Assembly: GCA_033819885.1 (NCBI GenBank)
Contig: JAQYUZ010000042.1
Coordinates: 1-64,000, forward strand
Source of the DNA: Microbotryomycetes sp. JL201
Lineage: Eukaryota > Basidiomycota > Microbotryomycetes
Direction: 5' to 3'
Length of the DNA stretch: 64,000 nucleotides
The notes beneath the pieces were generated by a model, which saw only the letters and a list, made by a program, of their open reading frames with translations, searched no databases and was not told where the DNA came from. Positions 21,691 through 43,636 of this stretch are shown in pieces (within the stretch, counting starts at the first letter, position 1; every line of letters starts with the position of its first letter). A program made the translations under genes and the position numbers.

Positions 21691-22139
21691 ATTTGCAACC
21701 TTGTCTAGATAGATAGATACGACTTTTTGAAATCCAAAAGTAGCAATTGACGTGTTATTCACTCGTTGCTTCGCTGGCTCCGACGTCGCCGTCCTCGCCG
21801 CCGCCCTCGCGCCTCCAGAGTCTCAGGAGCAGGCGAATCGCGTGTAGCCGACTGGGCCGGACGCCTGCTTGTCGGGCTCCTTGCGCCCACGTTGCTGCTC
21901 AAATACGCCAAACGTAACAACACGATCCGATACCGTTGTCAGAATCTTTGGTCGTCCAACATTCTTGTCGCCACTCTCGCGTCAACGGACACACAGACCT
22001 ACGCACACGACGACGCGCGTACGACGCACGTCTGTAGCCTGTAGACGGCACTTGTACTCGCCACCGACAAGGGCATTTCGGCACCCGATACACGTTCTAG
22101 CAAGGACCCTGATCGGCACGGCCACTGGCCCTCTGCGAG
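21691..22139. other. Intergenic, no gene seen
   Basis: 449 bp between the aldo-keto reductase stop and the start of the CxC5/CxC6 gene. No conserved frame. Confidence 0.5.
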
Positions 22140-24790
22140 ATGCATCATAAGCGGCGTGCGAGCTTGTCGCCGTCTTCACCTTGGTCATCATCGTCGTCTT
22201 CAGAAGAGGCGGAAGTGCGTGTACAAACGAGGGTCAAGCAGCATGATAGTTCTGGTCGTCGTAAACGAACCGTCATCGAGCGCGATGGTGTCGCAAACAC
22301 GGTTGCAACTGGCGCGGCACCCGAGGTTAGTCTCGTCCAAGGAGTATTGTGAATGTACACTCACGATCACCAAACCGCCGCACATTGGACTCTACATTCT
22401 ATTCTCCGCAGAGGAAGCCTCATTTGCACACGCTATCGCAGCCGTCGCCGAGCGCTTTGCCCCTTCATCAAATTGGCGCAAGAACAGACAGTCTCAGTAG
22501 CGACGTTCAGGAGCTGTCCGTGTTTAATCTGGTCAAGATATGCGCCGCCTTGCTCGACAACAGACCTTTGGTCGATCTGGCTGTCTGCCAAGCCCTCGCG
22601 CCACACGGTCGACTTACTTCAAACTCTGCATTCGGCGCCATGGCAAAGCTCGTCAACGGTGACAGTTTACCTCGTATCAACAGCTCTGGCATAGCGTCTA
22701 TCGCTCGCGAACTGGGCATGTACGACTCGGAAAATGCTTCCTCATCGTCATCGTCTTTTGTGAACGCGCTCGAGCCGCCAAAAGCAATTCTGTCTCGTCG
22801 GACAGAATGCATGCAGTGCCAGGCTCCGTTGTCTGTCATCAGCAGCGCGACCTCCTCTGTTTGGCTCGTGGACAATGGCTCGTTGAAACGAGCGACGCTC
22901 ATCAAACTCGCTTGCTCTTCCGTGTCGGGTTGCGGCGCTATTCATTCGCCCGACAAAGTCGAAATTCGTGTCCAACGTCAACGCTTGTGGATATACGATT
23001 CTGACTGTCAAGACTTGCGGGTTGGACGCCAAGTGTACGCCACGAGAGCGTTGGCCGAAACGTTTACAGTGATGCTCGAATCGCATTACGTCCCTGCGAG
23101 CGGCTTTGCTACGGCGTTGAATCGATTGCACCGTACTTCAGCAACCGCAGCCGAGGACAAAGACTTTCATTTGACGAGCAAAAACGTGTGGAAAGCGTTT
23201 GTGCTGCATTCGATCCTTCAAAAGTCCAAGGCTCTCGGACGACCGTTGATCTGTCCGGCCGACAGCTCGACCTCTGACATCGTTCAAGTTGCGCTTGACG
23301 ACTTGATGAGCTCAAAAGTTATAGATGAAGCTCTAGAGCACAAGTGTCCTGAATGTTGTCGGTACAAGCGATATTGGCGAAACAAAGTTGTAGCGGACGG
23401 AACTTCAAAACTGACGACGGGCAAACAAAAGGTACGTTCGAGCTGGCTTGACTTGTCGAAATAATCCTTGCAAAACGTTCATCTCGTTATGAACTAGAAT
23501 AAGGTGAAAGAGCTCACGCGCGTCGACAAGTCACAGGTCGTCAATCTCGCTGTTCTTGACGGGATCCGTATGGGTCATCGGGTGAGTCGTTCCAAGCATG
23601 TGACAGAGAGCAGGCTCATCCTTGACACGGAAAAAGCTGTGTGCAATCGAAGATTGTGCAAATTCGCCTTATTTGAGCAACGGTTTGTTTTGTTTCGATC
23701 ATCGACACTCGTGTCGGATACAAGGATGCGTCAATAGAACAGTCCACCGCAAGAAAGGACCTCAGAATAGCCTTGGACTCTGCAAGCCTCATGCTGCCAA
23801 GATCGGCCAAAGTTTGCACAAGTTCAAGCAACAGAAACGTCACGTTGCCGTCGACTCGATCGATGAGGACATGTCCGAGTGTGCATCAGACTCGACAGTA
23901 TCCTACGACATGTCATCACCAGCAAAGAGAAATCGTGATCGCTGTTTACCTCAAACAAGGCCGTCTGGTGCATACCTTACTGACACGTTTCGCTTGCCTC
24001 GTCAGGGTTGAAACGGTTGCAAAGTCGTCAAGTTGCAGGGATTCAACTCCTCGTCTACGCATGCGGCACCGTATTGGCTTGGCACAAACTAGAAACTGAC
24101 GAACAGGCTTCAGAAGTCTTGTCGTTCCTTGACAAAGTTGACGAGCAGACGAAAGGGACCTTGCCAAAAATTGTCGCGTACGACTCGAGTTGTAAATTGC
24201 TAGCACACATTGCCGACCGTTCAACACGAGATCCTCATTCGTCTTCGTCTTCCTCGTCAAGCTCAACCTCGTCAGAAAACGACTCTGTACCAAACTGGCT
24301 CGGAAGGACAAAGTTGATCGTCGACGCTTTTCACTTTACGACGCATTCAAAAGACGACATATTGTGTAGAACAATGTGCGACCCGGCTCCTTTGGATGGC
24401 AGCCAACCTGACCTTGTCACTCCGTTCAAGACAATCTTGTCGTCCACGCAGAGCAAATCTGATCGCACGACCAACGTTTCGAGCAGGATAGAGTTTCGAC
24501 GTGCTTTCAACACAAGTGTCTGTACAGTTACCAACTCGGTCTCGGACTATACTGAGACATTTTATAAAACTGACTGCAAACAGGCTGCGGAGCAGTTGAA
24601 CAGCTGGCTCCGAGGGTTCGCCACCCTCCTCACAACAATGTCTGCAGGCAAGTTTCAGTCCCAGATCCGGTCACTTTGCCTCAAACCTGACAACGTTTGT
24701 CCTTTCCTCGGACACAACTCTCAGATAACCACGACTTTATGCTTCAAGTCTTGCTCGAACGCAGGGTCGCAAGTCGAATGCAAACGCTGA
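22140..24790 (+). CDS. KDZ-transposase-associated CxC5/CxC6 cysteine-cluster protein
   Basis: Five exons (22140-22325, 22412-23431, 23498-23567, 23614-23967, 24006-24790) give 804 aa. A basic Ser-rich N-terminus leads to a block of about 330 residues with paired cysteines ('CMQCQ', 'CSSVSGCG', 'CPECCRYKRYW'), as in CxC5 domains. A second cluster follows from residue about 430: 'KKLCAIEDC', 'LFCFDHRHSCRIQGC', 'GLCKPHAAKI', the CxC6 pattern. The C-terminal part has 'IVAYDSSCK' and 'VDAFHFTTH...C..MCDP', resembling the YD..C and His/Cys motifs of KDZ-type RNase H-fold enzymes. In basidiomycetes such proteins occur with Kyakuja-Dileera-Zisupton DNA transposons. No terminal repeats are visible, so this may be a domesticated or solo gene. 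The exon 3/4 junction is the least certain; a GTGAGT at 23582 would leave an intron of only 25 nt. Confidence 0.75.
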
Positions 24791-24997: not shown

Positions 24998-27175
24998 CTA
25001 GTACTCCTCAGCAACCTCCTCGTCATCGCCGGCATCCATGCCGACCTCTTGGTAATCCTTCTCGAGCGCGGCCAAATCCTCTCGGGCTGTGATATCATCG
25101 ACAGTCAGCAAAGCTTTCCGAACATGGAGACTGACTGCGTTGCTTACCTTCGCTGAACTCGCCCTCCTCCATACCTTCGCCGACGTACCAGTGCACGAAC
25201 GCGCGCTTCGAGTACAACAAGTCAAACTTGTGGTCGAGCGTCTGCCACGCGCCAGCAATGGCCGTCGTGTTCGACAGCATGCACAAGCTGCGGCTGACTT
25301 TGGCCAAGTCACCGCCAGGCACGAGAGCCGGGGGCTCGTTGCAGATGCCGAGCTGCAAGAGACATGGTATACACCGTCAGCGACTATACTGCACGCGGTT
25401 GCAGCGTTCGGATATGCACACCTTGAAGCCGGTAGGGCACCAGTCGACAAACTGAATCGTGCGCTTCGTCTTGATGGTCGCGACGGCCGCATTGACGTCC
25501 TTTGGCACAACGTCGCCGCGGTACAAGAGTGCACAGGCCATGTACTTGCCGGAGCGAGGGTCGCACTTGACCATTTGGTTGTTGGGCTCGAAGCACGACA
25601 TGGTCAGCTCCGCAACAGAATTGGCCTCGTGCGACGCCTTTGACGCCGAGATGATGGGCGCGTACGTCGCCAACGGGAAGTGAATACGAGGGAACGGCAC
25701 CAAATTGGTCTGCGTGCGCAAAATTCGCCTTGTCAGCCGAGTCACGCCTTGCTCAAGCAGAACACTCGAAATTGACCTGGAACTCGTTCAAGTCGACATT
25801 GAGCGAACCTGCAAAGCGGAGCGAAGCAGTGACGCTCGAGACAACCTGGGAGTCGAGTGCAAGTGAGCTTGTGTTTGACGTTGTCATGCGCGAAATTGGC
25901 CCACCTGAGCGATCAAACGGTTCAAGTTGCGGAAACCAGGCGACGAGACGCCAAGCTTTGATCGGCAAATGTCGTAGATGGCCTCGTTGTCAATCAAGAA
26001 AGAGCAATCAACGTGCTCGAGCGTGGTGTGGGTCGTGAGGATAGCATTGTAAGGCTCGACGACCGAGTTGCTCTGCGTATCCGAACGAGCATTGAGCGCA
26101 GCACGAGAAAAGTTTGTTCAAGCTGCTCAGCTCACCATCTTGGGCGAAGGGTAAACGGCAAACTCGAGCTTGGACTTTTTGCCATAATCTTGCGAAAGGC
26201 GCTCGAGCAAGAGCGCACCAAAGCCGGAACCCGTTCCACCACCAAAGCTGCAACTCGATTGTCAGGTCAGACACTCGCATCATGAGATTCTGCCGACTGA
26301 CGAGTGGAAGACGAAAAAGCCTTGCAAGCCATTGCAGTTGTCGGCAAGCTTGCGGATCGTCTCGCAGGTCGTGTCGATGAGCTCCTTGCCGACGGTGTAG
26401 TGACCTGTATGATACGCACACGTCAGCGCATTAAAGACTTGTCTCGAGAGCTCCGCGAACGCCGACTGACCGCGAGCATAGTTGTTGGCGGCGTCTTCCT
26501 TGCCGGCGATGAGCGTCTCGGGGTGGAACAAGCCACGGTACTCGCCCGTCTTGATCTCGTCAATCACACCCGGCTCCAAGTCGATAAAGACTGAGCGAGG
26601 GACGTATTTGCCCTGGCGTGTGCAATAACGATGGTCAGCGCCTCGGCGCAAAGACGCGCGTGACGGCGCGCGTGGAACGTGGCGCGTCTGCACGCCAACC
26701 CCAGCCGCGCCTACAGCTGGGCGCTCAAGGGAGACGACGTACCGATCCGGTCTCTGAGAAGAAAGTCGAGAAGCCATCCTGGCCGCCGAGGGGCCCGTTA
26801 GCCGGGTCGAGCGGCAAACCTTCAGGCGAGAGGCCGTGCTCGAGCGTGTACAGCTGCGCGGGGACGGTCAGGAACGCGTGTCACAAGTGGTTCACAGGTC
26901 AAACAAGTCGACTGACCTCCCAACACGAGTTGCCGATCTGTGTGTTGCGGGCAAACACGCGCGCAACAACAACGCGGTCCGTGCGTCCTCGTCAGCCCGG
27001 GTTCTGTATCGCGATGGGCATACCGATGCGAGCAAAAGTGGCTCTGTACTGACCTGGCAACCGGCCTGACCAATGTCTGCACGCGCATGAGCCGGCAAAC
27101 GTGAGCAAACGCGTGGTCGTGTTGGATGAAAACGCGCGTGTCAAAACACTCACGGATAGACAAGACTTCTCGCAT
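24998..27175 (-). CDS. TUB1: Alpha-tubulin
   Basis: Twelve exons (27154-27175, 27054-27076, 26917-26937, 26743-26853, 26471-26612, 26302-26404, 26136-26247, 25905-26072, 25777-25845, 25422-25709, 25148-25352, 24998-25086) give 450 aa, the usual alpha-tubulin length. Landmarks are 'MREVLSIHIGQAGCQ', the GTP-binding 'GGGTGSG', 'WCPTGFK', '[14 protein letters not shown]' and an acidic tail ending in Tyr ('DDEEVAEEY'). It pairs with beta-tubulin in microtubules. The first three exons are only 22, 23 and 21 nt. Intron 26405-26470 is 66 nt with no stop in frame; reading it through would insert 22 residues between 'NNYARG' and 'HYTVGKE'. Conservation shows it must be removed. Confidence 0.97.
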
Positions 27176-27652
27176 CGTGAGCAGACGTGTATTGACTTGG
27201 AAAGGATGAGACGACGATCGGCAAAGGGCTCTGCTTGACTGTAGGCTTGCAAGTTACGAAGCCTGGTCGAGAGCGCGTGAAGCAAAGCGCGACTGCGCAC
27301 GCGCACGGCAGACGACAGCAAAGGGACTACGCTTGCGCTCACAAGAAGCACTGACGCATGTCAGCGGACAATCACAGCCTATTAGAGCCCGCCATGCACA
27401 TTTTGTTTATTTCATTTACAGACGCGCCCCCTGTCCGAGATATTGTGCCAAACGGCCCGACAGCACTCGCGCCAGGCTCTACACGCAAATTTCAAGTATA
27501 GAACGCTGAATATTCGGGCGGGCTATACGTATGGACCACGTGGATACCGCCGAGATTGCACCGCTTTTCGCAACCTCCGCGGCTTCACCTATCGCAATTT
27601 TTACTTCTGCTTGCCAACCAAGCGTTGGCATCTATCCGCATCCCCATTCTCA
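27176..27652. promoter_or_regulatory. Divergent promoter, alpha-tubulin / family-1 member A
   Basis: 477 bp lie between the outward-facing starts. It contains a 13-mer ATTAGAGCCCGCC at 27381-27393 that recurs exactly at 50170-50182. No gene. Confidence 0.45.
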
Positions 27653-28517
27653 ATGAGCAGCCCATTCTTTCCGCAGCGGCGCATTGTTTCGCCCTTAGAA
27701 TTATGGATTGAATTGCCACTGGCATCCTCGAACGGCGTTTCGTACTCGGTGCAAATTGACGGTAATGGCTATCGGCACTGGTCCAAAACCCAATTACGGG
27801 GTGGACATAGATTTGCAGGCAAGTTTGGCTTGCAACGGTGTGGCCTTGTTACGTAGATTGCTCACCGTCAGCGCGCGGGCACAGCAATCTTGGACGAAAG
27901 TCTCGGCACTGAAGATTTCATTCGAGTGCCTCCCCCTCTTGTCGGTGATCCAGATCGACTGGCACTCGATATTCGCCTCAAAGCCCCTACTGATGAGGAA
28001 TTTGAGAACTTGTGGCGTTTGGTCTGGCTCAGCGAATTTCTGACGGATCCTCGCAACCATACTGACAAGTGGAAAGATGTCAGCTGTTTAACTACAGCTG
28101 ATATAGACTCGCGAACTGATCAGCAAGTACATAGCGCGTTCGACGTTTGCAGCACCGGACTGAGGGTGGCGTGCGGTTTTGGACAGCCATTCAGAGGGCT
28201 CATCGGGATATTTTATTACACAAGGAGGCCCAACATGGCGTTGTGAGGCAGATTGCTTGTGCGAACCGTTCAACTTGCTCAGCTTGCCTTGTCTACAGGC
28301 CGGCCACCGTCTCAATCCCCCCGAAATTCAGTCAATCATGGCCAAATTTCCTTTCTTGCGAGACTTTTCCGAAAGGCTCGACTGCGCACTGTCGGTAAAT
28401 CATCCGTTTCGCACCGGACGAGCGGCCTTTCTCCACAGCGTGCATTCAGCCAACCAGGAAGCAATCGAGGCGGCTTCTGATCCAACAACTTCTGATTTTT
28501 CTATGGCATCCGACTGA
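27653..28517 (+). CDS. Orphan tandem family 1, member A
   Basis: Four exons (27653-27818, 27885-28078, 28153-28242, 28299-28517) give 222 aa. I do not recognise the protein. There is no signal peptide or membrane segment. Exon 1 starts 'MSSPFFPQ' and has a W/Y-rich strand-like stretch ('LWIELPL', 'GYRHWSK'). Exon 2 carries 'FIRVPPPLVG' and an acidic helix with 'LVWLSEFL'. Exon 3 has 'RFWTAIQRAHRDIL'. Exon 4 has 'GHRLNPPEI' and 'KFPFLRDFSERL'. All recur in members B-E downstream. Intron 1 uses a GC donor (GCAAGT) where member B has GTGCGT at the same place. The last intron of B-E is absent here. Confidence 0.7.
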
Positions 28518-28827
28518 CAGTTGACTGTAGTGGGTGGAATGAAGGCTTTGAGCTTTGTGCTCGGATCAACAGGTCTCATTTACTGTTGCGGACGCCCTGC
28601 CATGGTACCACACTGTCCTCGTTGCTGGGGCTGAGCCATTTTGGTATCGGTTCTTTCGAAGAAAAGGGTATAGAAGTGAATAAAGCTAGAACCGCTCATC
28701 TCGGCCCTGCAAACTGCCTGCAGCGCCATGTATTTTCTGTGCACCGCTTTTGCGGCAGCAAGTCCACGGGGCGATATCCTCTTGGCAGGTTGAACAAATC
28801 GGCCTTGTCTCGTAGAGCACCTTCTTC
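28518..28827. other. Intergenic, members A/B
   Basis: 310 bp between two same-strand family members. It presumably holds the promoter of B. No gene seen. Confidence 0.45.
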
Positions 28828-29729
28828 ATGAGCAGCCCTTTTCATCCACAGCAGCGTAGCAGATCGCCATCAGCATGGATCACGTTGCCACTGACGGCAC
28901 CGGACGGGTCGTGGCATTACACAATCAGAGTTGCACATGACGGAAAGAGGCACTGGGTCAAAGACAAGTCAGACGGAGCTCGGAGAACAGCAGGTGCGTC
29001 GAGTTGCGATTGTAGCAGAGTGCTATCTCAAACAAGGCCTGATCAGCTGCGGCAGCAGATGACTTTGTACAGGTGCCACCACTCCTTGTTGGCAGGACAG
29101 AGTATCTTCCGTCTTTCAGTACCATGCACAATCACGCACATGAAATCAAGCTTGAAGCTCAAGATGACGAAGAATTCAAGAAAAAATGGATTTTGGTTTG
29201 GATGGCAGAGATTGTCACGCAGCCCTCGTATCACAGTGAGGAGTGGAGAAGACGTGCGCAGCTCGTTGCGGGCAAAAGAGAGGGTGAGCCACTTGCAGCC
29301 GCTCCTCTCGCCAGATTTTGGTTTGAAATGTGCGCAGCCCATCGTGACATCCTCAGTGCAAAAGACGTTCAGTGGCACGTGGTAAGAATAAAAAAAAAAA
29401 ATCTGCATACTTCTGATCTCACAAGGATTTTCCATCTGCCGACAGATCGGACATCGCAACAACTCTGTGCCTGACCTCGAGCGAATCTTTGCCAAATGGC
29501 CATTTCTTCGAGATTTTGCCGCTCGAGTACGTTTCATCCTTCATCAGACCTGGCGATTCGCTCACCACGCCGCGGCTACAAACAGCTTGACGATGCACTC
29601 ACATCAGACACCCCCTTTCGTCGTGGCCGAGAGCTGCATTTAGCCAACGTCGAATTCTCAAACTCGCGTCAGATTGACAGCTATGAATTGCCCTCTTCTT
29701 CGCCAGACCATTTTTCCTCCTCACAGTAA
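28828..29729 (+). CDS. Orphan tandem family 1, member B
   Basis: Four exons (28828-28993, 29056-29381, 29446-29526, 29586-29729) give 238 aa. Exon 1 is 166 nt, exactly as in member A, and opens alike ('MSSPFHPQ', 'AWITLPL', 'GKRHWVK'). Exon 2 fuses the regions that are exons 2 and 3 in other members: 'FVQVPPLLVG', 'ILVWMAEIV' and 'RFWFEMCAAHRDIL'. Exon 3 has 'GHRNNSV' and 'KWPFLRDFAAR'; exon 4 has 'DTPFRRGR', as in A. A and B are the closest pair. Function unknown; no known domain, signal peptide or membrane segment. A run of A follows the exon 2 donor. Confidence 0.7.
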
Positions 29730-29938
29730 AATTCTGAGGGCCTTTGTGACAAAACTGGATGTTAGAGCAGATAGTCTGCATGGGCACTACATTCTTCATT
29801 CCAATATGTCTTGGGCTTGCCCAAAAGTTGCAATAGATGTCTTAGGAGCTACAACTGCCAACAAACTCCAAACTCCGGCCGTCGGCATCGCAGTGATTCT
29901 CTTCACCAAGCTGGGACACCTCTCAGCTTCTTGCTCGC

Positions 29939-31105
29939 ATGCCCGGCAATATATACTTTCCGGATCGCCGCACTCCTGGCTCCCTGGCACCACGTGTTGG
30001 GCTGCCACACATGCAGCGAGGCGGCGACGACCTCCACGTCCCTCAGAACCCACCAACCTCCCGACCTGGCTCGCCAGCACCAGAATCAAGAGCTCCTTTG
30101 ACCTTTGATCCTTTGCCAGAAAGCGATCAAGTGAACAGAATTGAACTCGTTCACGGCAAAACCTTCGTCTGGGAACCGAGGCAGATCGATTGCAACACAT
30201 GGGTTTACGCACAAACACGAGTACGATCTAATGCGAGACCAGGTGGGTGGCGTACCTGAAATTTTCAAAGCAATTCTGATTGGCCGGCTTCAGTTTTTAC
30301 CACTTTGCCACCTCTGTTGACAAGCGCCAGCACGAATCGCTTCAGAGACCTTGGTTTGACATGGGAGCAAGAAGGGTGGCTTGCCGATGAAAAGAAAATG
30401 GAGGCAGTACTGTGCGCAAGCTCGGCAAGAGAGCTAGTCCTGAAATTCAAGGCCCTTTGTTGGGCTGAATTGTTGTGCTTGCATTATCCTGTGGAGTCCG
30501 TTGCAGCTCGATGGCGTCAAGTGAGCCCAGGTTGGATCGCTTCCGGCCGATTACTGACAAAGCTCAGTGCAGCAATGTGCGGCAGATTTGAGCGTCAGCG
30601 AACCCGAAATTGCGGCGAAAATTGCTGCGTTTTACAAAGAATTGCGTCAAGCTCACGTTCAGCTACTGAGAGCGCACGTACGCCAAGCCAAGCATGTGAG
30701 TCATTCACGTTTGCTTCTTAACAGAAAACTGCTGTTCATGCGTTGCTCAAAAGCAGGAACCAGCAGCCCGTCTTCAAAGATACCAGCCAGAAGCGCTCAT
30801 ACAGCAAATTCTAGCGCAATATCCTCTCATGAGATCGTTTTCGGTCAGAGTGAGTCAAAGCAAAATGTGGCAGTCTGCGTTTGAGGCGCCAAGTTGATTT
30901 TCAATGGTCTTGTTCATCAAAACAGCTTGCACAAGACTTGTCCAGACCCGCAAACCTTCCGCAACACAAAGACTGGGACGTTGAGAACATCCAGCTGATG
31001 CGTAGGCTGCGAGCCGCCCAAACGCTCGCGCAGTCGATATGCAACAAGTTTTTGCAGCAAGGTCACAGTGACGTCTCAAGCAGCGAGAATGAAGGTGAAG
31101 CTTAG
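29939..31105 (+). CDS. Orphan tandem family 1, member C
   Basis: Five exons (29939-30242, 30294-30520, 30573-30695, 30757-30849, 30926-31105) give 308 aa, the longest member. Exon 1 adds a Pro/Arg/Ser-rich region of about 70 residues before the family's aromatic stretch ('FVWEPRQ', 'WVYAQ'). Exon 2 has 'LPPLLT' and 'KALCWAELL', exon 3 a helix 'YKELRQAHVQLL', exon 4 'ILAQYPLMRSFSVR'. Exon 5 is a long helix ending in an acidic Ser tail. Intron phases are 1, 0, 0, 0, as in D and E. Residue identity to A and B is low; membership rests on exon order, phase and motifs. Confidence 0.62.
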
Positions 31106-31296
31106 TTTACTCATTGATTCAACGTGACCTGAAAATGGCGCAATTTTGGTCCCTGTGCACCAGAATCAGACTTGCAACCGGTCCGTAGCCGGCCGGTCCA
31201 TGGATCCAGTTGCATTTCTCCGCGGCCTTTTCCCCCGCGGTTGGCCCGCCTGCAGCCTTATTTGTAGTACGTTGCCTTTCAAGCGTTTCTTGCTGC

Positions 31297-32399
31297 ATGC
31301 CTGACGAAGAGTATGTGCCACACCGCCGTCTTCTTGGCCGAGTCGTGAACGTGAGAAGGCCGTCAATCTCATCTTTGCAAGATTCTGAGGAAACCGGATC
31401 GGAAAGCAACGCCAGGCAAGACACTCTCGGGCCCAGTGTTGAGCTAGGTTTTATACCTCTGGACTTGCACGTGAATGTCGACCCAATTTTCAAGCGAGGC
31501 ATCCAATTTTTTGGATGGATGCCCCAACCATTTGCAAATTTTGACGGTCGAGAAGGCTGGCGATATGAAGCTGTTTCATTGACAAGCTCGTGTCCGGATA
31601 TCACCTGTACGAGTAAAAGTCATTTTTGCGCATCATTCGCAAGCAAAATCGCAGTGCGCTGATGGCTGATGTGACGTGCTTAGTGCGCAAACAGTACATT
31701 CTTCCGCCTCCCTTTACGTACACACGACCAAACCATTTCTCAGAGATGCAACAGCTGGTTGGGCCGACTTTGCAAGCTTTGCGGCTGCGAATATTTGCCG
31801 TATTTTACAGCGAATTACTGTGTGAACGCTATCCAAATGTCATTCACTTCAACGTTTGGAATACTGTTGGTGCCTGAAGAGCCAGATGCGCCTACTTGCT
31901 CTGACTGTAAATTTTGCAGGGCTGTCAGCTGTTGCTGCGTCAGGCAGCTAGATCAGGCCAAGATCCCGAAATCAAGTTCTTCTTTCAGCAAGTCCGAACG
32001 GCGCACATTGAACTGCTCAAGTGCATAGACATGCTCAACGCATTGCAAGCGGTAGCAGAACAATATCTCAACACTGCTTCTGTGTGTGGCGCTCATACAA
32101 ATACTCTCATAGGCGGGACATACCCACAACATGATCACCGAGCTGCAGCCACAACATCGCATTGAGACTATCTTGTCTCAATTCCCCTTCTTGCGTGGCT
32201 TTGTGCAAAGGGCAAGATTCGGTGACACTCATGAAGCAATATGCATCTGATCAGACTGCTTCGCCATTCCCAGCTTGAACAAGACTACACAGCTCCGGCT
32301 TGCTGGTACCATGAACATCCAAATGAGCGTTGGTCGTATTTGAAATCCGATTTGATGCGCAGGCGATTGATCGCAAAGGAAATGGTACAAGGCCAATGA
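31297..32399 (+). CDS. Orphan tandem family 1, member D
   Basis: Five exons (31297-31606, 31684-31865, 31920-32051, 32113-32211, 32274-32399) give 282 aa. Exon 1 has an acidic Ser-rich region, then 'FFGWMPQPF' and 'EGWRYEAV'. Exon 2 has 'YILPPPFTY' and 'FAVFYSELL', exon 3 'FFQQVRTAHIELL'. Exon 4 has 'AGHTHN' and 'ILSQFPFLRGFVQR', exon 5 'LEQDYTAPACW' and 'LMRRRLIAKEM', close to the last exon of C. The last intron (32212-32273) has a GC donor (GCAAGA); only this splice reaches the C-like final exon in frame. Function unknown. Confidence 0.6.
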
Positions 32400-32922
32400 C
32401 GGCATATCAACGCTGGGCTATGTTGCAACATTGTCATCTTTCTCGGATTTAGTTACTGAATCGCCCTTGGCAGGTTGCGAGCTCCGCGGCAGCAAAAACT
32501 TGCCTTCTTTTCCTCATGTCGCGTCTCCAAAAAAAACTCGCGTAAGAATCTTGATCAAAAATATCAAGACCAATGGGTTGCTAAGACTGAGCGACCTTCA
32601 GCTTGATGATGATCTCAGACAGAAACACTCAAACCTCATCCGTCGCCGGCAACTATCCGATTCGTTACATCCTACCCCGACGTGGGCATTTCCTGCGAGC
32701 AGGGCGCCGAATGTGTTTGCACTGAACAATTTTCGCTGAAGAGTATGAAGGGAGATTGCTGGAATAGGAACGACGAATGACGTAGCACAAGAGAATCGCT
32801 GCCTTCGCCGTTCCTTGTCAGGGGCTTTGGATGTGTCTTCGTCCGCGGCGAAAACGTTATGATGCTTGATTGCGGCAAGTCACATCTTCGAGCTCTCCTT
32901 TGTAATCTTTCGGCCACGTACA
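32400..32922. other. Intergenic, members D/E
   Basis: 523 bp on the same strand. I looked for another family copy and found no exon with the FPFLRDF or AHRDIL motif. Confidence 0.45.
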
Positions 32923-33863
32923 ATGCCAGGAGGCCACCATGAAGGCCACTCGTCGCGATGGGTTGGCCCGGGGCCTCCCTGGTCATCGTACCCGTTAATT
33001 GTGGCAAGTAATCAGAGTCGCTGGATGGCGGTGCGCTCGCCAGATGATGGCCAGTACCATTACCAATTACTGCCTCGTGGAAGTGTAGCGCACATTCCAA
33101 TCTGTCAGTCTTGCAGTAGCACGCGCCCCCATGTAAGGCTTGATCAAATCATAGGCTCATACATTCTTTTTTCCTCTTTCTTCTGATGTTATGTTCAGCT
33201 CGGTTCAGTCCAGACTCCAGTATCCAATTGCCGCCATGCCTTACAATCACCCAGTGTCACTATTTTCAAGAGTGCAAGCAGCTGTCAGGCAGCTCAATCG
33301 AGGAACTCAGGGCTCGTTTACGTCTGACATGGTTGAGCGAGGCGCTTGCGATTCGACTGGCGCCGCCCGAGCACATACGTGCTTGGGAAATGGTACGAAA
33401 GAATCAGCTTCCGCGGATTTCATTCTCTGACAGTGTGCCAATACAGGAGCTTCCACTGATTATAGTCCGTCACGAAAGCCGTAAACAATTTTGGAATCAA
33501 GTGCACTCTGCCCACCAGCGCTTGTTCAGGCTCAAGTTGGAGCAGCACGGCCTTCGGACATCGCGAGTGAGGGAGAAATTTACTGCATACCTGTCACCTG
33601 CGACTAACGTAGCACCACAATTCGCCAATAGTCGCACGATTCACAAGCCGAGATGGCCGATATTTTGCGGGATTTTCCCCATTTGAGTGGCCTCGAACAT
33701 CGAGTACGTGCTTGACACTGTGCCCGGTTCTACACAGACTCAATTCACTGACTTTGTCCTCAAGCTGGACCGGGATTTGCCGAGCACTGGTAGCTTTACA
33801 TCGCCTTTCGCGCAGCGTTATCTTGCTTTTCATGCGGACAGCGCCGACTCGGACAGTGATTAG
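32923..33863 (+). CDS. Orphan tandem family 1, member E
   Basis: Five exons (32923-33103, 33199-33392, 33447-33566, 33632-33703, 33738-33863) give 230 aa. Exon 2 is 194 nt, the same as in member A, and exon 5 is 126 nt, the same as in D. Motifs are 'WSSYPLIV' (exon 1), 'IQLPPCLT' and 'RLTWLSEAL' (exon 2), 'QFWNQVHSAHQRL' (exon 3) and 'ILRDFPHLSGLEHR' (exon 4). The tail is acidic ('DSADSDSD'). The intron between exons 2 and 3 has no stop in frame, so retention would add 18 residues. The last intron is only 34 nt. Function unknown. Confidence 0.6.
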
Positions 33864-34283
33864 CAGCGTTCAATTTGCTCTGAAATATATCTGCCGACGA
33901 GTGTGCATATCGCACAAGGATATCTGTCGCAAGTTGGCATCCTTTCCATGTTACAGTATGAGCTTTGAGCGTTCACGGCTCGAGACATTTTCGAAACCTG
34001 GCGCAAATTGCTTTTGCGGTCGGGACGCAATCATGTAATTTCAATCTCAATCGCCCTCATTCGTGATTACTATGTACCAGAAACACAGACTATTCGGACA
34101 ATCAGAAGCTGGAGCCCCACATCGGCGGGCGGCATCTCTCGTTTTGGACGAGAGACTCCGGCCCGGTTTATTAGCATTCAGGGAAGAGCGGGGCCCAGGC
34201 GCAAGCATGCTGATGCTCTGAGCTTGAACAGCTCAGTCGTCGGCTGCATCTGTCGACGGTCACGACCTGTGGCGCTTGGGGAG
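33864..34283. other. Intergenic, family 1 / Zn2Cys6 regulator
   Basis: 420 bp upstream of the regulator gene. No gene seen; it should hold that gene's promoter. Confidence 0.45.
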
Positions 34284-36726
34284 ATGGCGGCAAACGACGA
34301 CGGGTCAATGCGGTTACCTTTCCCTTCGACAACCGTCGGGGCAGCCCTGGCACCGTCACGCGCCCACACTCTCAGCGCCGATGCAGTCAGACAGCTTAAT
34401 TCGGCGCTTGCAACAGTTGCCGAACTGGCGCAGGCCGAAGACCAAAACATGAGCGCACGGAACTCGCGCAGGCGGCGAGCAGCTGCAGCAGCCCAAGCTG
34501 ACGACATACCGGTGACAACGACAAAGTCTTGCACCGCATGTCGCCGAGCCAAGAACCGCTGCATGCCGAGCGACGACCCGCAGACCTGCCAACGGTGTTT
34601 GACGCTCAAACAACCCTGCGAGCATCCCATCTCGCAAAACCGAGGGCCAAAGAAGCGCTCCAGCAGGCAAGACTATGCTGAACCTTGCCGCCGCCATTCC
34701 TTCGAGCTGACACACTCTTCGCGCACAGAACTCAGCGAGCCTTGCAGGCTATTCAACGCAATATACAGGCAGCACTAAATGGTCAGGTGATTGAAGACAA
34801 TGCCGACGACGATGAAAGTCAAAGTGAAGAGTGAGTCCTGGCGATCTGCGCATTCGACATCGGCTCACGCCACAAATTACAGGGGCGAGTGTGGCACGAG
34901 TCTGCTCAGAAATCCGCTTGCCCTTCTGGCTCACCAAGCGCAAATCCGACTCGACACGACTCACAGCGGCGCTCCTGTCGACGAGTCTTCCCAAGAACCC
35001 ACAGCTCGGGCTTCACTGCAGCAGGACGAACACAGTTCGGCTCTAGACCCTGTCACTTGCGGCATCATCACCATCGACGAGCTCGAGCGCTTGCACCGCT
35101 TGTACTTTACGCGACTGCACCCGTTCCTCTGGCTCCTGGTACCAGAACTTCACACAGTCGACAATCTACGACGACGCTCGGCATTCCTGACGACGAGTCT
35201 TGCTTTTGTCGCCTCGACCTTCGATCCCTTGTCTCCACCTCTGACGCCCCTGTTGGAGCGTCACGCGCACGGCCTTGCAGTTCACGCATTCGAGAAAGGC
35301 TGGAAAACGATCGAGACCATACAAGCATATTTTCTCTTGTCGTGAGCAGATGGTCATCCTGACGTTCTCCGTGAAGCGAGACTAAGCGAGTCTATTTGCG
35401 TTCACCAGTCACTGGGCGTCGCCTGTGTCAAACAATGTCGAAGACCGAGCGTTCCAATTCCTTGGGCAGGCATGGCGTATCGCCGTCGAAATCCACCTTG
35501 AAAGTTCGTCGGCCTCGGACATTGTGGATAACGGACCACTGCAACGCGCGCATATAGATTTACTTGTCAAAGACCGAAAAGTGACATGGCTGCTGCTGTT
35601 CTGCGGGGAACTTGCGTGAGCCAGTTCATCATACCAATCCGTTACGTTAATAAGCTTGTGTTCCTGCGTCCCAGCATCTGCGTGCAGACCGGACGCTTGC
35701 AGACAATGCGACTACCGCCCATACCAAGTGAGGACAGTGCTTCTTGAGCGGCTATCTCATACTCACTCCAAGCCATGTCTTCAGACTTTACCTTTTCACC
35801 CTCGAATCTGCCGCCTGAGCTGCCGGACTACAACTATGCCGCGAACATGCAGGTCAACATCATTCTCGCGCGCTCAATTCAACTTTCCGATCAGCTCCGC
35901 GAAAAGGGCGAAGCAGCCACCTCGTTTGTGGCGTTCTGGAAGCCCGCCATGGCCGAATGGCGTGCGAAATGGCCCGACATCAACTCTTATATCAATATTC
36001 ATGCCGAGAATAATACTATTCTGCTCAACTTCATGACATTGCGATTGCGAGGCGCCTCAACGGCGAGCATTCTGGACGAATGCAGGAACGCAGCGATCAG
36101 AACAGTCGACAGGGTAGCAACGTGGGGCGACTTTCTCACCGTCGATCTGCGTTACGCTTCGAATTTTGCGGTTGTCAACATGGCGTGAGTCGCGTGCGGT
36201 ATGCATGGAGACCAGGTCGACTGACAGTCATGTATTATCTAGCTACGGAGCGATGCTGTTGCTGCAATTAACGCTCAACCTTGATCAGCACGTAGACGCA
36301 GCGACTCTGAACAAAATACGGGTCGTGGCAACAACATTACGGCAAATCGGTCAATTTCGACACGTTTTTTCGATCGCGTCACTCTATTCGCAGCGCATCT
36401 TCGCACTCGTCGAGAAACTGGCTTCAGAGGAGAGTGAATCCCAATTTGACCAATGTGGTCTGCAGCAGCTTGGCTCAGGTGATGCCATGTCGGAGTCGAC
36501 TATGTCCCCTTCGGCCACCATTCCATTGCCGCTCGATGACGGGGTCTTGAACGCGACCATGAATATCATCGATGAATCGAACCTTGACGCATACTCAACG
36601 ACAAATTGCTTTAGTTCATGCTTCACCATGCAGTCGACGACCGACTTTCTTGGAATGACGGCGCATGACCCAATGCTTGCCTGGACGTGGGGAACGAGTG
36701 TAGAACAATCCATGCCTATGTTTTAA
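34284..36726 (+). CDS. Zn(II)2Cys6 transcription factor, probable regulator of the adjacent amidase/nitrilase genes
   Basis: Seven exons (34284-34666, 34729-34830, 34883-35341, 35409-35615, 35675-35727, 35785-36184, 36243-36726) give 695 aa. The zinc cluster reads 'CTACRRAKNRC', then 'CQRCLTLKQPC', near residues 84-112, followed by a basic linker ('RGPKKRSSR'). The middle region has 'LYFTRLHPFLW', 'ETIQAYFLLSHW' and 'AWRIAVEIHL', the xylanolytic/fungal-TF pattern. The C-terminus is acidic and Ser-rich. Intron 1 (34667-34728) has a GC donor (GCAAGA) and no usable GT nearby. It ends 89 bp from the amidase stop, the two genes being convergent. The regulatory link is inferred from position only. 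Confidence 0.87.
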
Positions 36727-36815
36727 TGATCTTAACGCGCTGGTACAACTTTATTATATGCCAAATAGGCAGATCCTACGAATTTGCGCGGGACAATCTA
36801 TTTCGAAAGCGAGGT

Positions 36816-38893
36816 TTACTCCCGAGTCAAGACACTCTGCACCGTCTGTGCCAAAGCGAGCAACTCGTCCTCTCGGAAACGTCGAGGACTGACGAGTTGC
36901 AGAACGAGTGGCGCGTTGGCAAACGTGTCCGGGTCATCTGCAGCGGATTATTAGCCAGCCTTGCACATCGAGCAACCTCAAGTCCGACCTACAGCTGTCC
37001 CAGTGTTGCTCATCTTGTAGCGAGAAAGGCTCTTCGGGCATGGAAATTTTTCGGTCTAGCAGAGGATCGAGTTCCCCGAACGGTACGGTGACTGCTGGAA
37101 GATCCAAGATCGACCAGGTTGTTGTCCAAGTGATCATTCTGCAACCATGTCAGTGTGAGAGGCTAATAGACGAATGAGACTTTACAAATCGCTCACTCTG
37201 GCTCCTGCGGTCGACCGAGGTGCGGCCATGCCAGATGAGGTGTAACCGGACAAATTATGAGGTCAAAAGGTCTTCTCGTCTCGCTAGCTTGTCCGGACTG
37301 GCGCCATGTGCGCAAAAAGTCGGCGCGGAAGGTATCTCGGCGTTGCATGAGTTGGGAAAGCTCGTAGACGGAGAGACAGTCCAAGCTGGCAAATGGGAAC
37401 GCTTCTGGAATGGCAGGCTGCGTTTCCGTTATCACAAGAGGCGTCAACGCTGAGATATCGCGTTTTGGCGGTCTTTGCCCCACCTCTCCTGTTGGCGCAA
37501 GGAAACTACGTCGATCTTGCCCCGCGTCTGCACCGGATATCAGTCCGACAAGCTCCTTCGACTCGGACCAATCAATATTCGACAGCGGGGAGACTAGAAA
37601 GACAGCGAACATTGAGTGACTATGGATCATTGACAGGGCAAAGAAGTTGGCAACACACCTTCGTGGCCAGCTCGCCTGAGGGCAAGGACAGTCTCATTGA
37701 TAGCTCGGCGGAGCGGAGGATGCGCGTGTATAAATCCGTTGTCATATGCAAACGCGACGTGCAATCGTGATGGCACAACGATCGTGCTAGGAATTTGCCA
37801 CGGCTGCAAGAGAGAGCCCGCATCAATAATGAAGGCGAGCACATCCGAGAAACAAAGAGGACTAACCCTTTCGACAACTTTGCTGTCATACATTGACGGT
37901 TCTGCCCCGCAGACAGCTTTCATAAAGACGTCGAGAGAGTTCAAGGACCTCGCCATGGGACCAATTGTTGACTCCATGCCTTCGTAGCCTTTCATGACGT
38001 TTGAGACTCCGGAGTAGGGCATACGTCGTGTGGTTGGTCGCAGCCCATACAAGCCACAGCAATGCGAAGGGACGCGGATCGACCCCCCTGCCACCCAGCA
38101 AGCTTAGTGCGCAACTCATGGTGGCCTACGATCTCAGACTCACCATAATCAGTGCCAACTCCAAGGATGCTGCCCTTGAGGGCCAGCAGAGCGCCCTCGC
38201 CTCCAGAAGATCCGCCACAAGTCAGGCCGGTGTTCCTCGGGTTCACCGTTCGACCAAACACGTTGTTATTCGTCTCTGCCGCCATGAGCGTCTGCGGCAC
38301 ATTCGTTTTACAGTACAATACCGCTCCCAAATCGAGCAAAATGTCGACAAGCACGCTGTTGTGGGAGGCGGGTTTGCCGACGAGGGACACGAAGCCAAGT
38401 GATGAATCAGCGCCGACAATGTCGAACTGATCTTTGAGTGATATAGGCAAGCCATGAAGCGGGCCGACATGCGATCCGGTTCGAGTCCAATGCTCATCGA
38501 GCTTGCGAGCTCGAGCGATCGCGGCGTCAAAAAATGTCTCGGTCAAGCAGTTTGTCTGCAGCGGAGACTCGTTTAGTATGATATTGGTACTGTCAGGCGT
38601 GTGTGACCTACAAGCTGCTGTGCAACGGCCGCCCGGCGGCAAAATGCCTCGGCGACCTCGACGGCTGAATATTTGCCTTTCCAAATATGCTCAAGGAGCA
38701 CGCTCGCTTCATCAATGTCGGTGATCTCTTTCTGGCGCTCGTCGAGGACCGAGCATCCACTTTGTATGAAACTGCAAACGTCTGCCGGCAGCGAAGCGAG
38801 CTCAGAAGGCAGCAGTCTGTATTGCGGCGGGATGAGAGCGGCGCATGTTGCTCTCTTGGCCGCTGCCTTCACCTCCCATGTCTCCACAGCCAT
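36816..38893 (-). CDS. Amidase (amidase-signature family, acetamidase/FAAH-like)
   Basis: Seven exons (38612-38893, 38144-38555, 37867-38087, 37659-37803, 37197-37593, 36993-37138, 36816-36937) give 574 aa, normal for fungal general amidases. The Ser-cisSer-Lys triad is visible: Lys in 'PISLKDQFD', the two Ser in 'CGGSSGGEGALLA' and 'GTDYGGSIRVPSH'. The C-terminus has 'LDLPAVTVPFG' and 'NAPLVLQLV'. It hydrolyses an amide to the acid plus ammonia, in the cytosol. ATGs exist at 38971 and 38893; the latter ('MAVETWE') gives the family's usual N-terminus. It is divergent from an MFS gene and near a nitrilase, so it could process amides taken up or formed locally. Confidence 0.92.
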
Positions 38894-39521
38894 GCCTGAG
38901 CCGTCATCGAGACTCGCTCTGATCTTGTTGGGCGTCTGTGCGACCGTTTGCGCGGCTTGGGTGAGCAACATCAAGCAGACGCGAAGTATAGCAGGTCAGA
39001 GAGTCATTCCGAGGGCCAAATCTCTCTCTGTCTCAGACAGGCAGCGCACGCTCTCGCGTTTGACGAGAGAATCCGCGCTGCGGTTGTGGGGATTTGCGCC
39101 AGGCAGCAACAAAGTGGGGCCGAGGACCGCTTTATCCCCCCTTTTCCGCTCTTGCGACGACCCGGAACCTCGAAAAATACCGGCAAACATGCCACCACGG
39201 GGGTTTTATTTACCCAGCTAGAGACCGCGTGCCGTGATCGCCGCCGGACTTGCTCGTCAGGGCCGAACGAGTCCGGGACCGTAGTTCGCTTATCATGCAT
39301 TTCCCCGCGCGCCATGGTCTGTCGGACTTGCTCGTACATGTCGAGCAGGCCGTGACGTATCGCGCCTTTCCCAGGCCCATTTGCTCTGGTCCTGCACGAG
39401 TATCCCCGCCACCCCCGGATAGTTGCTCCGCTATCGGTGTTGAAGTCAGCTCAACCTTGTCTGCACTTGACTTTTCTCTCTTCTCCTAATAATCACCCCT
39501 GAGCACAAATCTGCGACCTTG
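38894..39521. promoter_or_regulatory. Divergent promoter, amidase / MFS transporter, with GATA-type motifs
   Basis: 628 bp between the two outward-facing starts, so the genes are probably co-regulated. TTATCA at 39290-39295 and CTATCG at 39431-39436 fit HGATAR on the minus strand, the site of fungal AreA/Nit2 nitrogen regulators. Two such hexamers in 628 bp can occur by chance. Confidence 0.45.
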
Positions 39522-41680
39522 ATGACATTCGGAATTCTCGAGCCCAAAGGACTTGATAACAGGACGAATGTCCTCGGAACAGCCTTGCTCGAAGAGACGA
39601 CAGCAACGCGAGCGAACACTTTCAACAAACACGCTCCTGGCCGTCCAGATCTCATTCTTGTTCCTACCCCTTCGGATGACATGGTGAATGATCCGCTCAA
39701 CTGGTCGAGAGCAAAGAAAGAAGCTGCATTTGCGGTCCTTTGGTTGGGTACAGTCCTGGCGGGTCAGCCTCGCCGAGTTTGATTCATATGTTCTCATGTC
39801 TTATCCTTCAACACCATCAGGCACCGGCGGTCCACTGGTCGCTCCCGCGTTCGTGGAAATCGCAAAAGACTTTGATCGGCCCCTCTCGCAGATCGCACAA
39901 ATTAATGGTCAGACTCGTCTTGTATCGGATTCGAGAGCCATACCCTCAGCTGACCGAGTCTCTGCTCCGACATGACAGGTGCACTCGTTCTCGCAATTGG
40001 CCCAGGCAGTGCTTTCCTCGGTCCGTTGCAGACGAAATGGGGCATGCGCCCAGTATTCCTCTTGTCAGCTGTAGGTAGCATCTGTAGAGCAAAGCCGATG
40101 CAGAAAGCTGACGAGGCGCGCAGATCATGGCACTCATTGGCCAGGTCTGGGCTGGAGCGTCCAAATATAATTTTCCGTCGCTTATTGGCGCTCGCGTTGT
40201 TCAAGGTCTCGGCATGAGCGCCTACTTCAACAACGTCCCAGCTGCGATTGAAGCCATCTACTTTGTCCATGAGCGTGGCACCCGCATGGCTTTGTGGAAT
40301 CTGGCCCTCGTCGGGTCAGTGACACTTCCCGCCCGGTTGTTTTGTGGCGAACTGACTCTGAGCACCTGATCAGTGGCATCAATTTGGGACCTGTCATCTC
40401 GTCGCAAATCTGTCAGCGTCAAGGATGGCAATTTGCATTCTGGTGGCAAGCTGTTGCTTGTGGCATCGTACTTCTTGGCACCATCGGACTCGTCCCAGAG
40501 ATGATGTACGACCGGACGTACTACGTGGAAGCATGCGAGAAACGTCGCAGAGCCCTTGACAATGGGTCTTCGTCGCCCTCGCAAGACTTTGACGAAAAGA
40601 CATCGGATCGAGACAAGGAAGCTGCTTTCGCAAATGTTGTTCCGGCCGACGTTAACGCAGCACCGACATCGCGCTGGGGGCAGTACAGATTCTGCACTGG
40701 AGTCAAGTCGGATACTTCATTCCTCAAACTGCTTCTGCGACCTGTGAACTATGTTTACTCCCCGACGGTCCTTTGGGCGACCTTGACGTTTTCCGTGTGC
40801 TTCAACCTCTTACCTCTTGCCGCCACCGTGTACGGACAAATCTTCGGGGCTCCTCCATACAATCTCTCTGTAGGCGGCATTGGCCTAGTCGGCGGTGTTC
40901 CGCCGCTGATTGGCACCTTGATCGGAACGTTTGCCACCGGGCCAGTCTCGGACGCGATGGCCAAGTGGCTGTCGAAGCGAAACCAAGGCATCTACGAGCC
41001 TGAATACGTAAGCTGCCCCAACGGTTTGATACTCATCTTCATGACTGACTAGAAGCATGCGGCAGCGACTTCTCACCATGACTTTCTTCCTCCTTTTCAG
41101 CGGAATCGGTTTTTACGGGTGGGCTTTACAGCAATCCACTTCCTGGGTTGCGCCTGCCATTGTGAGTACCGTCGCTTTCCAGAGTGGTATTCGCGTCTGT
41201 CGTTGACTCAGTGCATGTCATCAAGTTTATTGCAATTCTTCACATTGGCGTGTCGGCAGCGACCATTTCAAGCTTTTCGTATATTGCAGACGCTTTGCGC
41301 GACGGCGCAGCCGATGCCCTGGGTTTCGTTGTGTAAGTGATACGTTCTGACATTCAAGCGGACGTGTGACTTATACGCCCTCATCTCCCTCTTTCAGTCT
41401 GATCAAGAGCATTATCGGATTTGGGATAGCGTTTTTCGTAAATGATTGTGAGTTTCGTCAATTATGAGAAAGGCCGTAGCGACTGACAGAGAGCTCACAA
41501 TGGGCGCAAATAGGGTATGCTGCTCGTGGTCCGCGCCAGTTTTTTGTCTCACTCGGCTCGTTGGTCGTGGCGACTTCTGCGTTGTCCGTGCCAGCTTGGA
41601 TCTTTGGCAAGCGCGCACGTCATTGGTTCTCGATGCACAACGTACTTTCGGAACGGGGTCCATGTACCGCACTTGCGTAG
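39522..41680 (+). CDS. MFS transporter (DHA1/HOL1-like, 12 TM)
   Basis: Nine exons (39522-39762, 39821-39907, 39979-40070, 40124-40314, 40374-41007, 41066-41161, 41226-41332, 41398-41447, 41514-41680) give 554 aa. A cytosolic N-terminus of about 60 residues ends in 'DPLNWSRAKK', typical of fungal DHA1 drug/proton antiporters. TM2-5 follow: 'GTGGPLVAPAF', 'GPLQTKWGMRPVF', 'GARVVQGLGMSAYFNNVPA'. A large central loop with acidic and Lys-rich stretches precedes 'LLLRPVNYVYSP'. Its place between amidase and nitrilase suggests it imports their substrate, such as an amide or nitrile (inference). The acceptor of exon 6 is less certain. Confidence 0.85.
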
Positions 41681-42164
41681 TTTCTGTTTGGTTTTGGACC
41701 CGAGTCAGGGTTCTTTGTCTCGAATTTTTTTTTCCGCCCAGATTTTTGAGGATGCGTTTCGGGTCTGGTCTGGCTGTAGATAGGCATATATTGACATGCA
41801 TGATGTCGGCCGCTTATAAATTTTTTTTCTCGGAATCTACTTGCGTGCCAGCCGAAGTTTGCCTTTTACAAAGGCGGTGCGCCACATCTCGTTAAAGTAT
41901 TTATCGCTTCTCTTTCCGCCTAGACTCACGAAGCAGCTTTCGGGTTCGGGCATCAAGAGGTTGTCAGTGAGGTACTACACTTATCGGCGCATGCCCGCTT
42001 TTGGGTGCGATAAGTCTGAAACCGCCGCCCGGCGCGTTTGGCTCGCGAGTATTTCCGCCACGACGGATGACCAAACGCGGGGTCTGCGAGCCACGACTCT
42101 TGCTGTCCGGCGCAACCGGGCTTTTGCTGTCAAGTTCGGATTGGCACGCTTCGCAGATTGCAAG
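41681..42164. promoter_or_regulatory. Nitrilase promoter with three GATA-type motifs
   Basis: 484 bp upstream of the nitrilase. TTATCG at 41901-41906, CTTATCG at 41980-41986 and CGATAAG at 42008-42014 all fit HGATAR; the last two lie 28 bp apart and about 150-190 bp before the ATG. This fits nitrogen-catabolite control by an AreA-type factor (inference). Confidence 0.5.
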
Positions 42165-43636
42165 ATGGCCTTGCGACAATTCAAGGTGGCTGCGGCTCAA
42201 CTTGATGCAGGTGCGATGCGATGCACCTCGAACACAGTCGCAGCTTCGAGTACGCTTACGTCCGGAATCATCAGTTTTTTACGACGCTGAGGCAAACTTG
42301 CGAAAAATCTTGTCGGCAATTGAAGAAGCGGCCACAGCCGGCGCCAAACTCGTCGTGTTTTCAGGTTGGTCCGATTGAATTCTCATGGGAATTGGCTCTT
42401 GTATCTCTGACGGTCTTCCGTCAGAACTAGCACTGTCAGGCTATCCATTTCATATTTGGACGCTACCATACCACGGTGAGATGCCAAGCACAATGCGATG
42501 CTATGCTTTGGCTCGGGGCTTACCTGGCGCCACGCGTACCAGAGCAATTACCGTTCATCAAGCAGTTCTACATTGATGCTGCGGTCGAAGCCGAAGGGCC
42601 AGAAATGCGCGCGCTGCAAGCCGCTGTGATCAAATACAACATCAGGGCCGTCGTAGGCTTCAGCGAGCGCGACGGAGGATCATTATTCATGTCGCAATGG
42701 ATCCTCTCACCAAGTGGCGACGTCAAAGTGAGACGGAAGCTCAAACCAACATCTCTCGAACGAATCGTCTATGGAGAAGGTGACGTAAGTGCACAGCAGT
42801 CGACATCCAGAAGTGGACGCTGACGAGAACGGTGGCAGGGCTCAGACCTCAAAGTACACGACACCGAGCTCGGCCGTCTTGGAGTACTGCAATGTTGGGT
42901 ACTTTCATGCTTTCCACTGTCAGCAGATACTCATTGCTGACCTGTGACTTGGGCACGGACCAGGAGCACGTACAGCCGCTGATCAAAGTGGCAATGTCAA
43001 GCCAGCACGAAGAGCTACATGCCGCCAGCTGGCCCATTTTTCCAGCGGCTTTGCCACATTTTTCGCTCTCTCGAGAGGCGAATTCGGCCGCTTTAAAGAC
43101 GTACGCGGTCGAGACGGGCTCGTTTGTCGTCTCGGCCTCGAGCCTGTTTTCGCACCAGAACATTGATGTCTTGTCGGCCAATGGCACTCGCCTGTGTCCT
43201 CTGGAGCCTGGTGCAGGTTGGTCGACGATCATCGACCCCGAAGGCCGCACGCTCGCCACGAGTGAGCCCGACAAGGCTGGGTTGATCTATGCCGATATCG
43301 ACCTCGATGATTGCTACAAAGCCAAGAGTGTTCTTGATCCGGTCGGGCATTACAGTCGACGTGACGTCTTTCAGGTGAAAAGTATTGGCTTCTACTCGAA
43401 TACGGGCCAATCGTGAGCTAAGTGAGGCCATTGCTTCGCAGGTCAACTTTGACATGACGCCACGACATGTTGTTGAAGTCGGCACTCGTTCGCGACCGCA
43501 TCACGGGACAGCATTTCGACAAAGTCGAGCCGAACAATTCAGTGCAAAAGCCTCGGAGACAGGAGGACTTGCTCCAGCTGTCACCTTTGAGAAAACAGCA
43601 GATCCATCCCGTCCTCTCGAAAATACAGGGGCCTAA
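42165..43636 (+). CDS. Nitrilase / carbon-nitrogen hydrolase
   Basis: Seven exons (42165-42210, 42275-42364, 42425-42475, 42543-42784, 42839-42898, 42964-43374, 43442-43636) give 364 aa. The catalytic Glu-Lys-Cys triad is visible: 'FSELALSGYPFHIW', 'RRKLKPTSLER' and 'VLQCWEHVQPL'. The Cys-Trp-Glu context is that of true nitrilases and cyanide hydratases rather than amidases of the superfamily. It turns a nitrile into the acid and ammonia, or into an amide. Exon 3 to exon 4 was resolved with a 67-nt intron (42476-42542); without it the frame is lost. The amidase next door could take an amide product onward. Confidence 0.86.

What the first reader, a model, noticed from the sequence alone, without database searches (positions are those of the whole stretch)
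27653..33863. A five-gene tandem array of an unrecognised, fast-diverging protein family
Five head-to-tail genes (A-E, 222-308 aa) share one gene structure. All have a phase-1 first intron followed by phase-0 introns at matching places. Exon sizes coincide: 166 nt for exon 1 in A and B, 194 nt for exon 2 in A and E, 126 nt for the last exon in D and E. Shared motifs come in fixed order: an aromatic stretch, then 'PPLL', then 'W(L/M)(S/A)E', then 'FW....AH(R/Q)..L', then 'FPFLRDF..R'. Between motifs the sequences hardly align. Intron phase plus motif order implies common origin with rapid change, as in genes under conflict or host interaction. None has a signal peptide, so they act inside the cell. 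I know of no described family with this pattern.
Basis: partly seen in the sequence, partly recalled or inferred. Interest (0 to 1): 0.82.

Follow-up and report, generated by a model that had tools for sequence, protein, structure and literature searches.

The report
Tandem array of an orphan family
Near one chromosome end of a fungus, five side-by-side genes are old, strongly diverged copies of one ancestral gene whose protein resembles nothing in the databases searched; the array is real, but there is no sign yet of unusually fast or conflict-driven change.

Summary
Five head-to-tail spliced genes (A 222, B 237, C 308, D 284, E 221 aa) at 27653-33863 descend from one ancestor. Each protein matches a profile of the other four at 59-105 bits; the best of 1000 shuffles per gene reaches 3.8-9.9 bits. 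All have a phase-1 first intron. Introns 2 and 4 fall on identical alignment columns in the four genes that have them; B lacks one and A the other. A+B and C+D are sister pairs, as serial tandem duplication predicts. No known domain was found in Pfam, PDB sequences or one viral-contig scan. Genome searches with all five found relatives nowhere else in the 17.15 Mb assembly, though they could miss copies as diverged as these. Details need correction: E's last exon is probably 99 nt, not 126, and the motifs are looser than written. 'Fast-diverging' and 'under conflict' are not supported: synonymous codons look saturated in all ten pairs, so age alone can explain the divergence. Exon-level structure models are helical but weak; one fold search found nothing. 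Most likely a lineage-restricted family of small intracellular helical proteins; function is inferred only.

The parts
27653..28517 (+). gene A, 222 aa; exons 27653-27818, 27885-28078, 28153-28242, 28299-28517; intron 1 is GC-AG; lacks the fourth intron site of the others
28828..29729 (+). gene B, 237 aa; exons 28828-28993, 29059-29381, 29446-29526, 29586-29729; lacks the second intron site of the others
29939..31105 (+). gene C, 308 aa; exons 29939-30242, 30294-30520, 30573-30695, 30757-30849, 30926-31105; all four intron sites; longer N-terminal part
31297..32399 (+). gene D, 284 aa; exons 31297-31612, 31684-31865, 31920-32051, 32113-32211, 32274-32399; introns 1, 3 and 4 provisional, last intron GC-AG
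32923..33863 (+). gene E, 221 aa; exons 32923-33103, 33199-33392, 33447-33566, 33632-33703, 33765-33863
   Evidence: exon 1 revised

Best explanation
The five genes are an old, serially duplicated tandem array of one lineage-restricted fungal gene, about 27 kb from a telomere. Shown: common ancestry, shared intron sites and phases, A+B and C+D as sister pairs, no detected relative elsewhere in the assembly. Inferred by parsimony: an ancestral gene with four introns (phases 1,0,0,0) and one later intron loss each in A and in B. Inferred: each makes a small soluble intracellular protein with a variable tryptophan-containing N-terminal part, a conserved mainly helical core (carrying the W-x-x-E-like, F-W-x5-A-H-like and F-P-F-L-R-x-F-x-x-R-like motifs) and, in A, B, C and E, a serine/acid-rich tail. 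Most likely the core is a binding module that holds a partner protein through its conserved aromatic and arginine residues, and the copies have diverged in the N-terminal part and tail to bind different partners or act in different conditions. This mechanism is a commitment without a direct test (about 0.3 by itself); the ancestry part is about 0.95.
For: Leave-one-out profile scores far above shuffles; blastp lists 8 of 10 pairs at E <= 1e-3; intron 2 on one alignment column in A, C, D, E and intron 4 on one column in B, C, D, E; (A,B) supported 97/94 and (C,D) 96/97 (earlier E model); codon positions constrained in A-B; genome searches with all five proteins hit only this array, and a degenerate pattern for F-P-F-(L/F)-(R/S)-(D/E/G)-F has two matches genome-wide, both here, in A and D; exon-level models are helical; no strongly hydrophobic stretch.
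Against: No RNA, no orthologues, no solved or confident structure. The two AlphaFold models cover one exon each and are weak (mean pLDDT 63.4 both, pTM 0.40 and 0.28); a PDB fold search of the first found nothing with E <= 0.001 and the second was not searched. A binding function is not tested. B-E and C-E are not listed by blastp at E <= 1e-3. Shared intron sites are not fully independent evidence, since models were partly guided by similarity. The genome search works exon by exon and found few cross-matches even inside the array (query D reached E only at 0.0034; query C reached no other member), so distant copies elsewhere could be missed.
Confidence: 0.6

Rival explanations
1. A fast-evolving array under conflict (host interaction, self/non-self recognition or defence): copies change quickly to track a moving partner.
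For: Subtelomeric position (telomere repeat at 1-81), tandem array, low identity between copies (20-45% on aligned codons), no relatives detected elsewhere.
Against: Synonymous codons look saturated in all ten pairs, so there is no measure of rate; the codon position pattern in A-B shows constraint; intron sites have been kept; no near-identical copies: the longest repeats found in 26800-35000 are 21-26 nt at 72-81%.
Confidence: 0.12
2. Diverged members of a known family that sequence profiles cannot recognise (for example a helical regulatory or adaptor domain), so the family is not new in fold. This is compatible with the best explanation.
For: Only five sequences were available and no structure of the whole protein; exon pieces are helical.
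Against: No Pfam hit for the five up to E 10 except one member's chance-level match to Glyco_transf_5 (E 0.069); no PDB sequence match up to E 10; no fold match for one exon model.
Confidence: 0.3
3. Remnants of or cargo from a mobile element.
For: Subtelomere; an ORF at 22331-23461 matches the CxC5 cluster associated with KDZ transposases weakly (E 1.6e-5, 25.5 bits against a cut-off of 26.9).
Against: Genes are spliced at shared sites with constrained frames; no long repeats in 26800-35000; no other copies found in the assembly.
Confidence: 0.06

Closest known systems
Lineage-restricted, tandemly duplicated gene families near fungal chromosome ends (general class, recalled; related titles and abstract openings seen in the listings, e.g. 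PMC4055711, PMC5082898, neither opened)
   Same: Tandem paralogues near a telomere with no known domain.
   Different: Examples that I recall are often recent, similar copies on many chromosome ends; here the copies are deeply diverged and were found at one locus only.
Fungal candidate effector families (general class, recalled)
   Same: Small proteins in a tandem array without detectable relatives.
   Different: No strongly hydrophobic stretch, 1-6 cysteines per protein, no host known; no evidence of secretion.

Membership tests
Tandem paralogue array of one gene family | members are homologous | tested here: met
   leave-one-out profile 59.4-104.5 bits vs at most 9.9 in 1000 shuffles per gene
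Tandem paralogue array of one gene family | adjacent, same strand, shared intron sites | tested here: met
   introns 2 and 4 exact, introns 1 and 3 within 10 and 6 alignment columns
Tandem paralogue array of one gene family | neighbours are each other's closest relatives | tested here: met
   (A,B) and (C,D) in the tree (earlier E model); end branches are long, so depth is unsure
Known protein domain family (Pfam-A) | profile match above cut-off | tested here: not met
   (with an earlier model of E, 7 aa shorter); one chance-level match at E 0.069 in one of five members
Fungal secreted effector | N-terminal signal peptide | tested here: inconclusive
   no signal-peptide program on hand; highest mean hydropathy over 19 residues is 0.56-1.12 (earlier E model)
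Rapidly evolving conflict gene family | dN/dS above 1 or copy-number change between strains | not testable with these tools
   synonymous sites look saturated between copies; no strain or sister-species genome is held ('no relatives here')
Subtelomeric gene family | members on several chromosome ends | tested here: inconclusive
   genome searches with five proteins hit only this locus; a profile scan of the next 60 kb of this contig and of 30 kb lying 10-40 kb from the telomere of C78 found none. One search shows telomere repeats on 12 contigs; the other 10 ends were not scanned by profile

The most novel reading that the evidence does not exclude
The family is a new protein fold private to one fungal lineage, kept as five old, functionally distinct copies that act together inside the cell, for instance as a self/non-self recognition or counter-element system at a chromosome end.
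Probability: 0.06. Interest if true: 0.7.

Novelty: new member of a known kind. Interest (0 to 1): 0.33.

Why it matters
Orphan families are common, but few are laid out so that their history can be read from one locus: the shared intron plan, one intron missing in each of two copies, and sister pairs are all visible in 6 kb. If the proteins are expressed, five diverged copies supply a ready natural alignment for structure work on an undescribed family.

Tried and rejected
Rejected: a known domain; a viral source (one peptide pattern, 10 stretches matched, none confirmed at E <= 1e-3); recent duplication; further members in the window (next best E 0.41 at 22113-22349, not reported at E <= 1 with the revised profile) or in 100 kb of other sequence (best E 1.3). 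My first motif pattern for F-W-x-A-H had one codon too few because I copied the finding's spacing; it therefore could not match the array, and its single hit on C67 means nothing. Paper searches on subtelomeric or tandem orphan families (11 papers, 10 listed; 9; 19, 10 listed) showed no title describing this family; only listings and abstract openings were seen and no paper was opened. A prokaryotic promoter scan is not informative here. An alpha-tubulin check in a wrong frame gave nothing (and protein 10); the right frame did.

My first model of E (used) had a weaker donor for intron 1; one search showed a better one and revised E from 214 to 221 aa. With the revised E, B-E is no longer listed by blastp at E <= 1e-3, although it was 1.7e-9; C-E is not listed and was 7-10. 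The protein typed as B carried one extra alanine at the first splice junction (238 aa instead of 237).

Full report
What was checked. The window is bases 1-64000 of contig C37 (155,086 bases) of an unnamed 17.15 Mb, 92-contig genome. It opens with 13.5 copies of ACCCTA, a telomere-type repeat that one search also finds at the ends of 11 other contigs. Neighbouring genes look fungal: a Zn2Cys6 cluster near 34.5 kb (PF00172, E 0.0044, 17.5 bits against a cut-off of 21), an alpha-tubulin gene on the minus strand, and an amidase, an MFS transporter, a carbon-nitrogen hydrolase and a copper amine oxidase further on. That the fungus is a basidiomycete is my guess from intron density and the weak CxC5 match; it was not tested.

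Gene models. I placed exons by open frame, splice signals and agreement between copies, then scored each of the 18 introns against in-frame alternatives of 45-130 nt with ends within 30 bases, using splice weights trained on the other four genes. The chosen intron ranked first in 12 of 18. The others were C intron 3 (rank 2), D intron 1 (5), D intron 2 (2, tied score), D intron 3 (2), D intron 4 (5) and E intron 1 (6). E intron 1 was then changed to the top-ranked site, which makes 13 of 18. For D intron 1 a second phase-1 donor six bases upstream scores higher than mine. Because models were partly guided by similarity between copies, shared intron sites are not fully independent evidence. The reading frames of the motif-bearing exons do not depend on that choice: single stop-to-stop frames of the window already match the family profile (that profile was built from these genes).

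Common origin. All five proteins are related: leave-one-out profiles score 104.5, 95.7, 59.4, 77.5 and 60.9 bits for A to E, while the best of 1000 shuffles per gene scores 3.8-9.9; reversed sequences score below zero (B-E) or are not reported (A). Eight of ten pairs are listed by blastp at E <= 1e-3; B-E and C-E are not. On the alignment, intron 2 lies on column 206 in A, C, D and E (absent in B), and intron 4 on column 287 in B, C, D and E (absent in A). Intron 3 lies on columns 252-258 in all five, and intron 1, in phase 1, on columns 118-128 in a poorly aligned part. The simplest history is an ancestral gene with introns in phases 1,0,0,0, then loss of intron 2 in B and of intron 4 in A. 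The tree joins A with B (97/94) and C with D (96/97), but end branches are long, A's is implausibly short (0.017), and it used the earlier E model.

Tempo. The claim of rapid change was tested as far as five copies allow and not borne out. Among shared degenerate amino acids, codons differ at 0.59-0.76 of sites, against 0.65-0.69 expected from random codon choice, over the ten pairs (earlier E model). Synonymous change looks saturated, so dN/dS is meaningless (the one estimate, A-B dN 0.55 and dS 4.9 by NG86, must not be read as a rate). In A-B the codon positions differ 0.42, 0.35 and 0.64, as constrained coding sequence does. The longest repeats in 26800-35000 are 21-26 nt at 72-81%. The copies are old or unmeasurably diverged; whether they are also fast cannot be told without orthologues.

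What the protein is. Pfam gave nothing at E <= 10 for the five apart from one member's match to Glyco_transf_5 at E 0.069. A PDB sequence profile search gave none up to E 10, and one viral-contig scan none. A scan of prokaryote genomes was not possible with the alignment. The fold predictor takes only contiguous translations, so two single exons were modelled: B exon 2 (three helices, mean pLDDT 63.4, pTM 0.40) and A exon 4 (three helices, mean pLDDT 63.4, pTM 0.28). A PDB fold search of the first returned three matches, none with E <= 0.001; the second was not searched. These support 'mainly helical core' weakly and no more. Proteins are 24.6-34.9 kDa, without a strongly hydrophobic 19-residue stretch, with 1-6 cysteines (earlier E model); by eye, A, B, C and E end in a serine/acid-rich tail.

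Spread. Whole-genome searches with all five proteins and one motif pattern found only this locus. The search is exon by exon and reports lower bounds; inside the array it linked only some copies (A and B to each other, D and E to each other at 0.003-0.007, C to none), so equally distant copies elsewhere could be missed. A profile scan of 100 kb of further sequence (60 kb of the same contig, 30 kb from C78, 10 kb of C67) found nothing better than E 1.3.

Verdict. The array is a genuine, old-looking, tandemly duplicated family with no recognised domain, and lineage-restricted as far as could be seen; no other eukaryotic genome could be searched. It is a good example of a common kind of finding. 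The proposed function, intracellular binding modules with copy-specific partners, is an inference at about 0.3.

Noticed in passing
window 24998-27175 (minus strand; ends read by eye): An intron-rich alpha-tubulin gene lies about 25 kb from the telomere, divergent from gene A. A search of the assembly with one of its exons found itself and one 36% match on contig C11, so this may be the only alpha-tubulin gene.
   Followed up: partly
window 22331-23461 (+): A 377-aa ORF matches the CxC5 cysteine cluster associated with KDZ transposases just below the family cut-off (E 1.6e-5).
   Followed up: no
window 34500-43413 and 54070-55626: A Zn2Cys6-type gene, amidase (minus strand, 37995-38690), MFS transporter, carbon-nitrogen hydrolase and copper amine oxidase lie within about 21 kb, which looks like a nitrogen or amide catabolism neighbourhood.
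   Followed up: no
window 8034-10874 (minus strand): A 947-aa uninterrupted frame with only a weak Pik1 match (E 0.001, below cut-off).
   Followed up: no
window 27819-27884 and 32212-32273: Two introns in the array are GC-AG in the models given; the second was not the best-scoring choice.
   Followed up: partly
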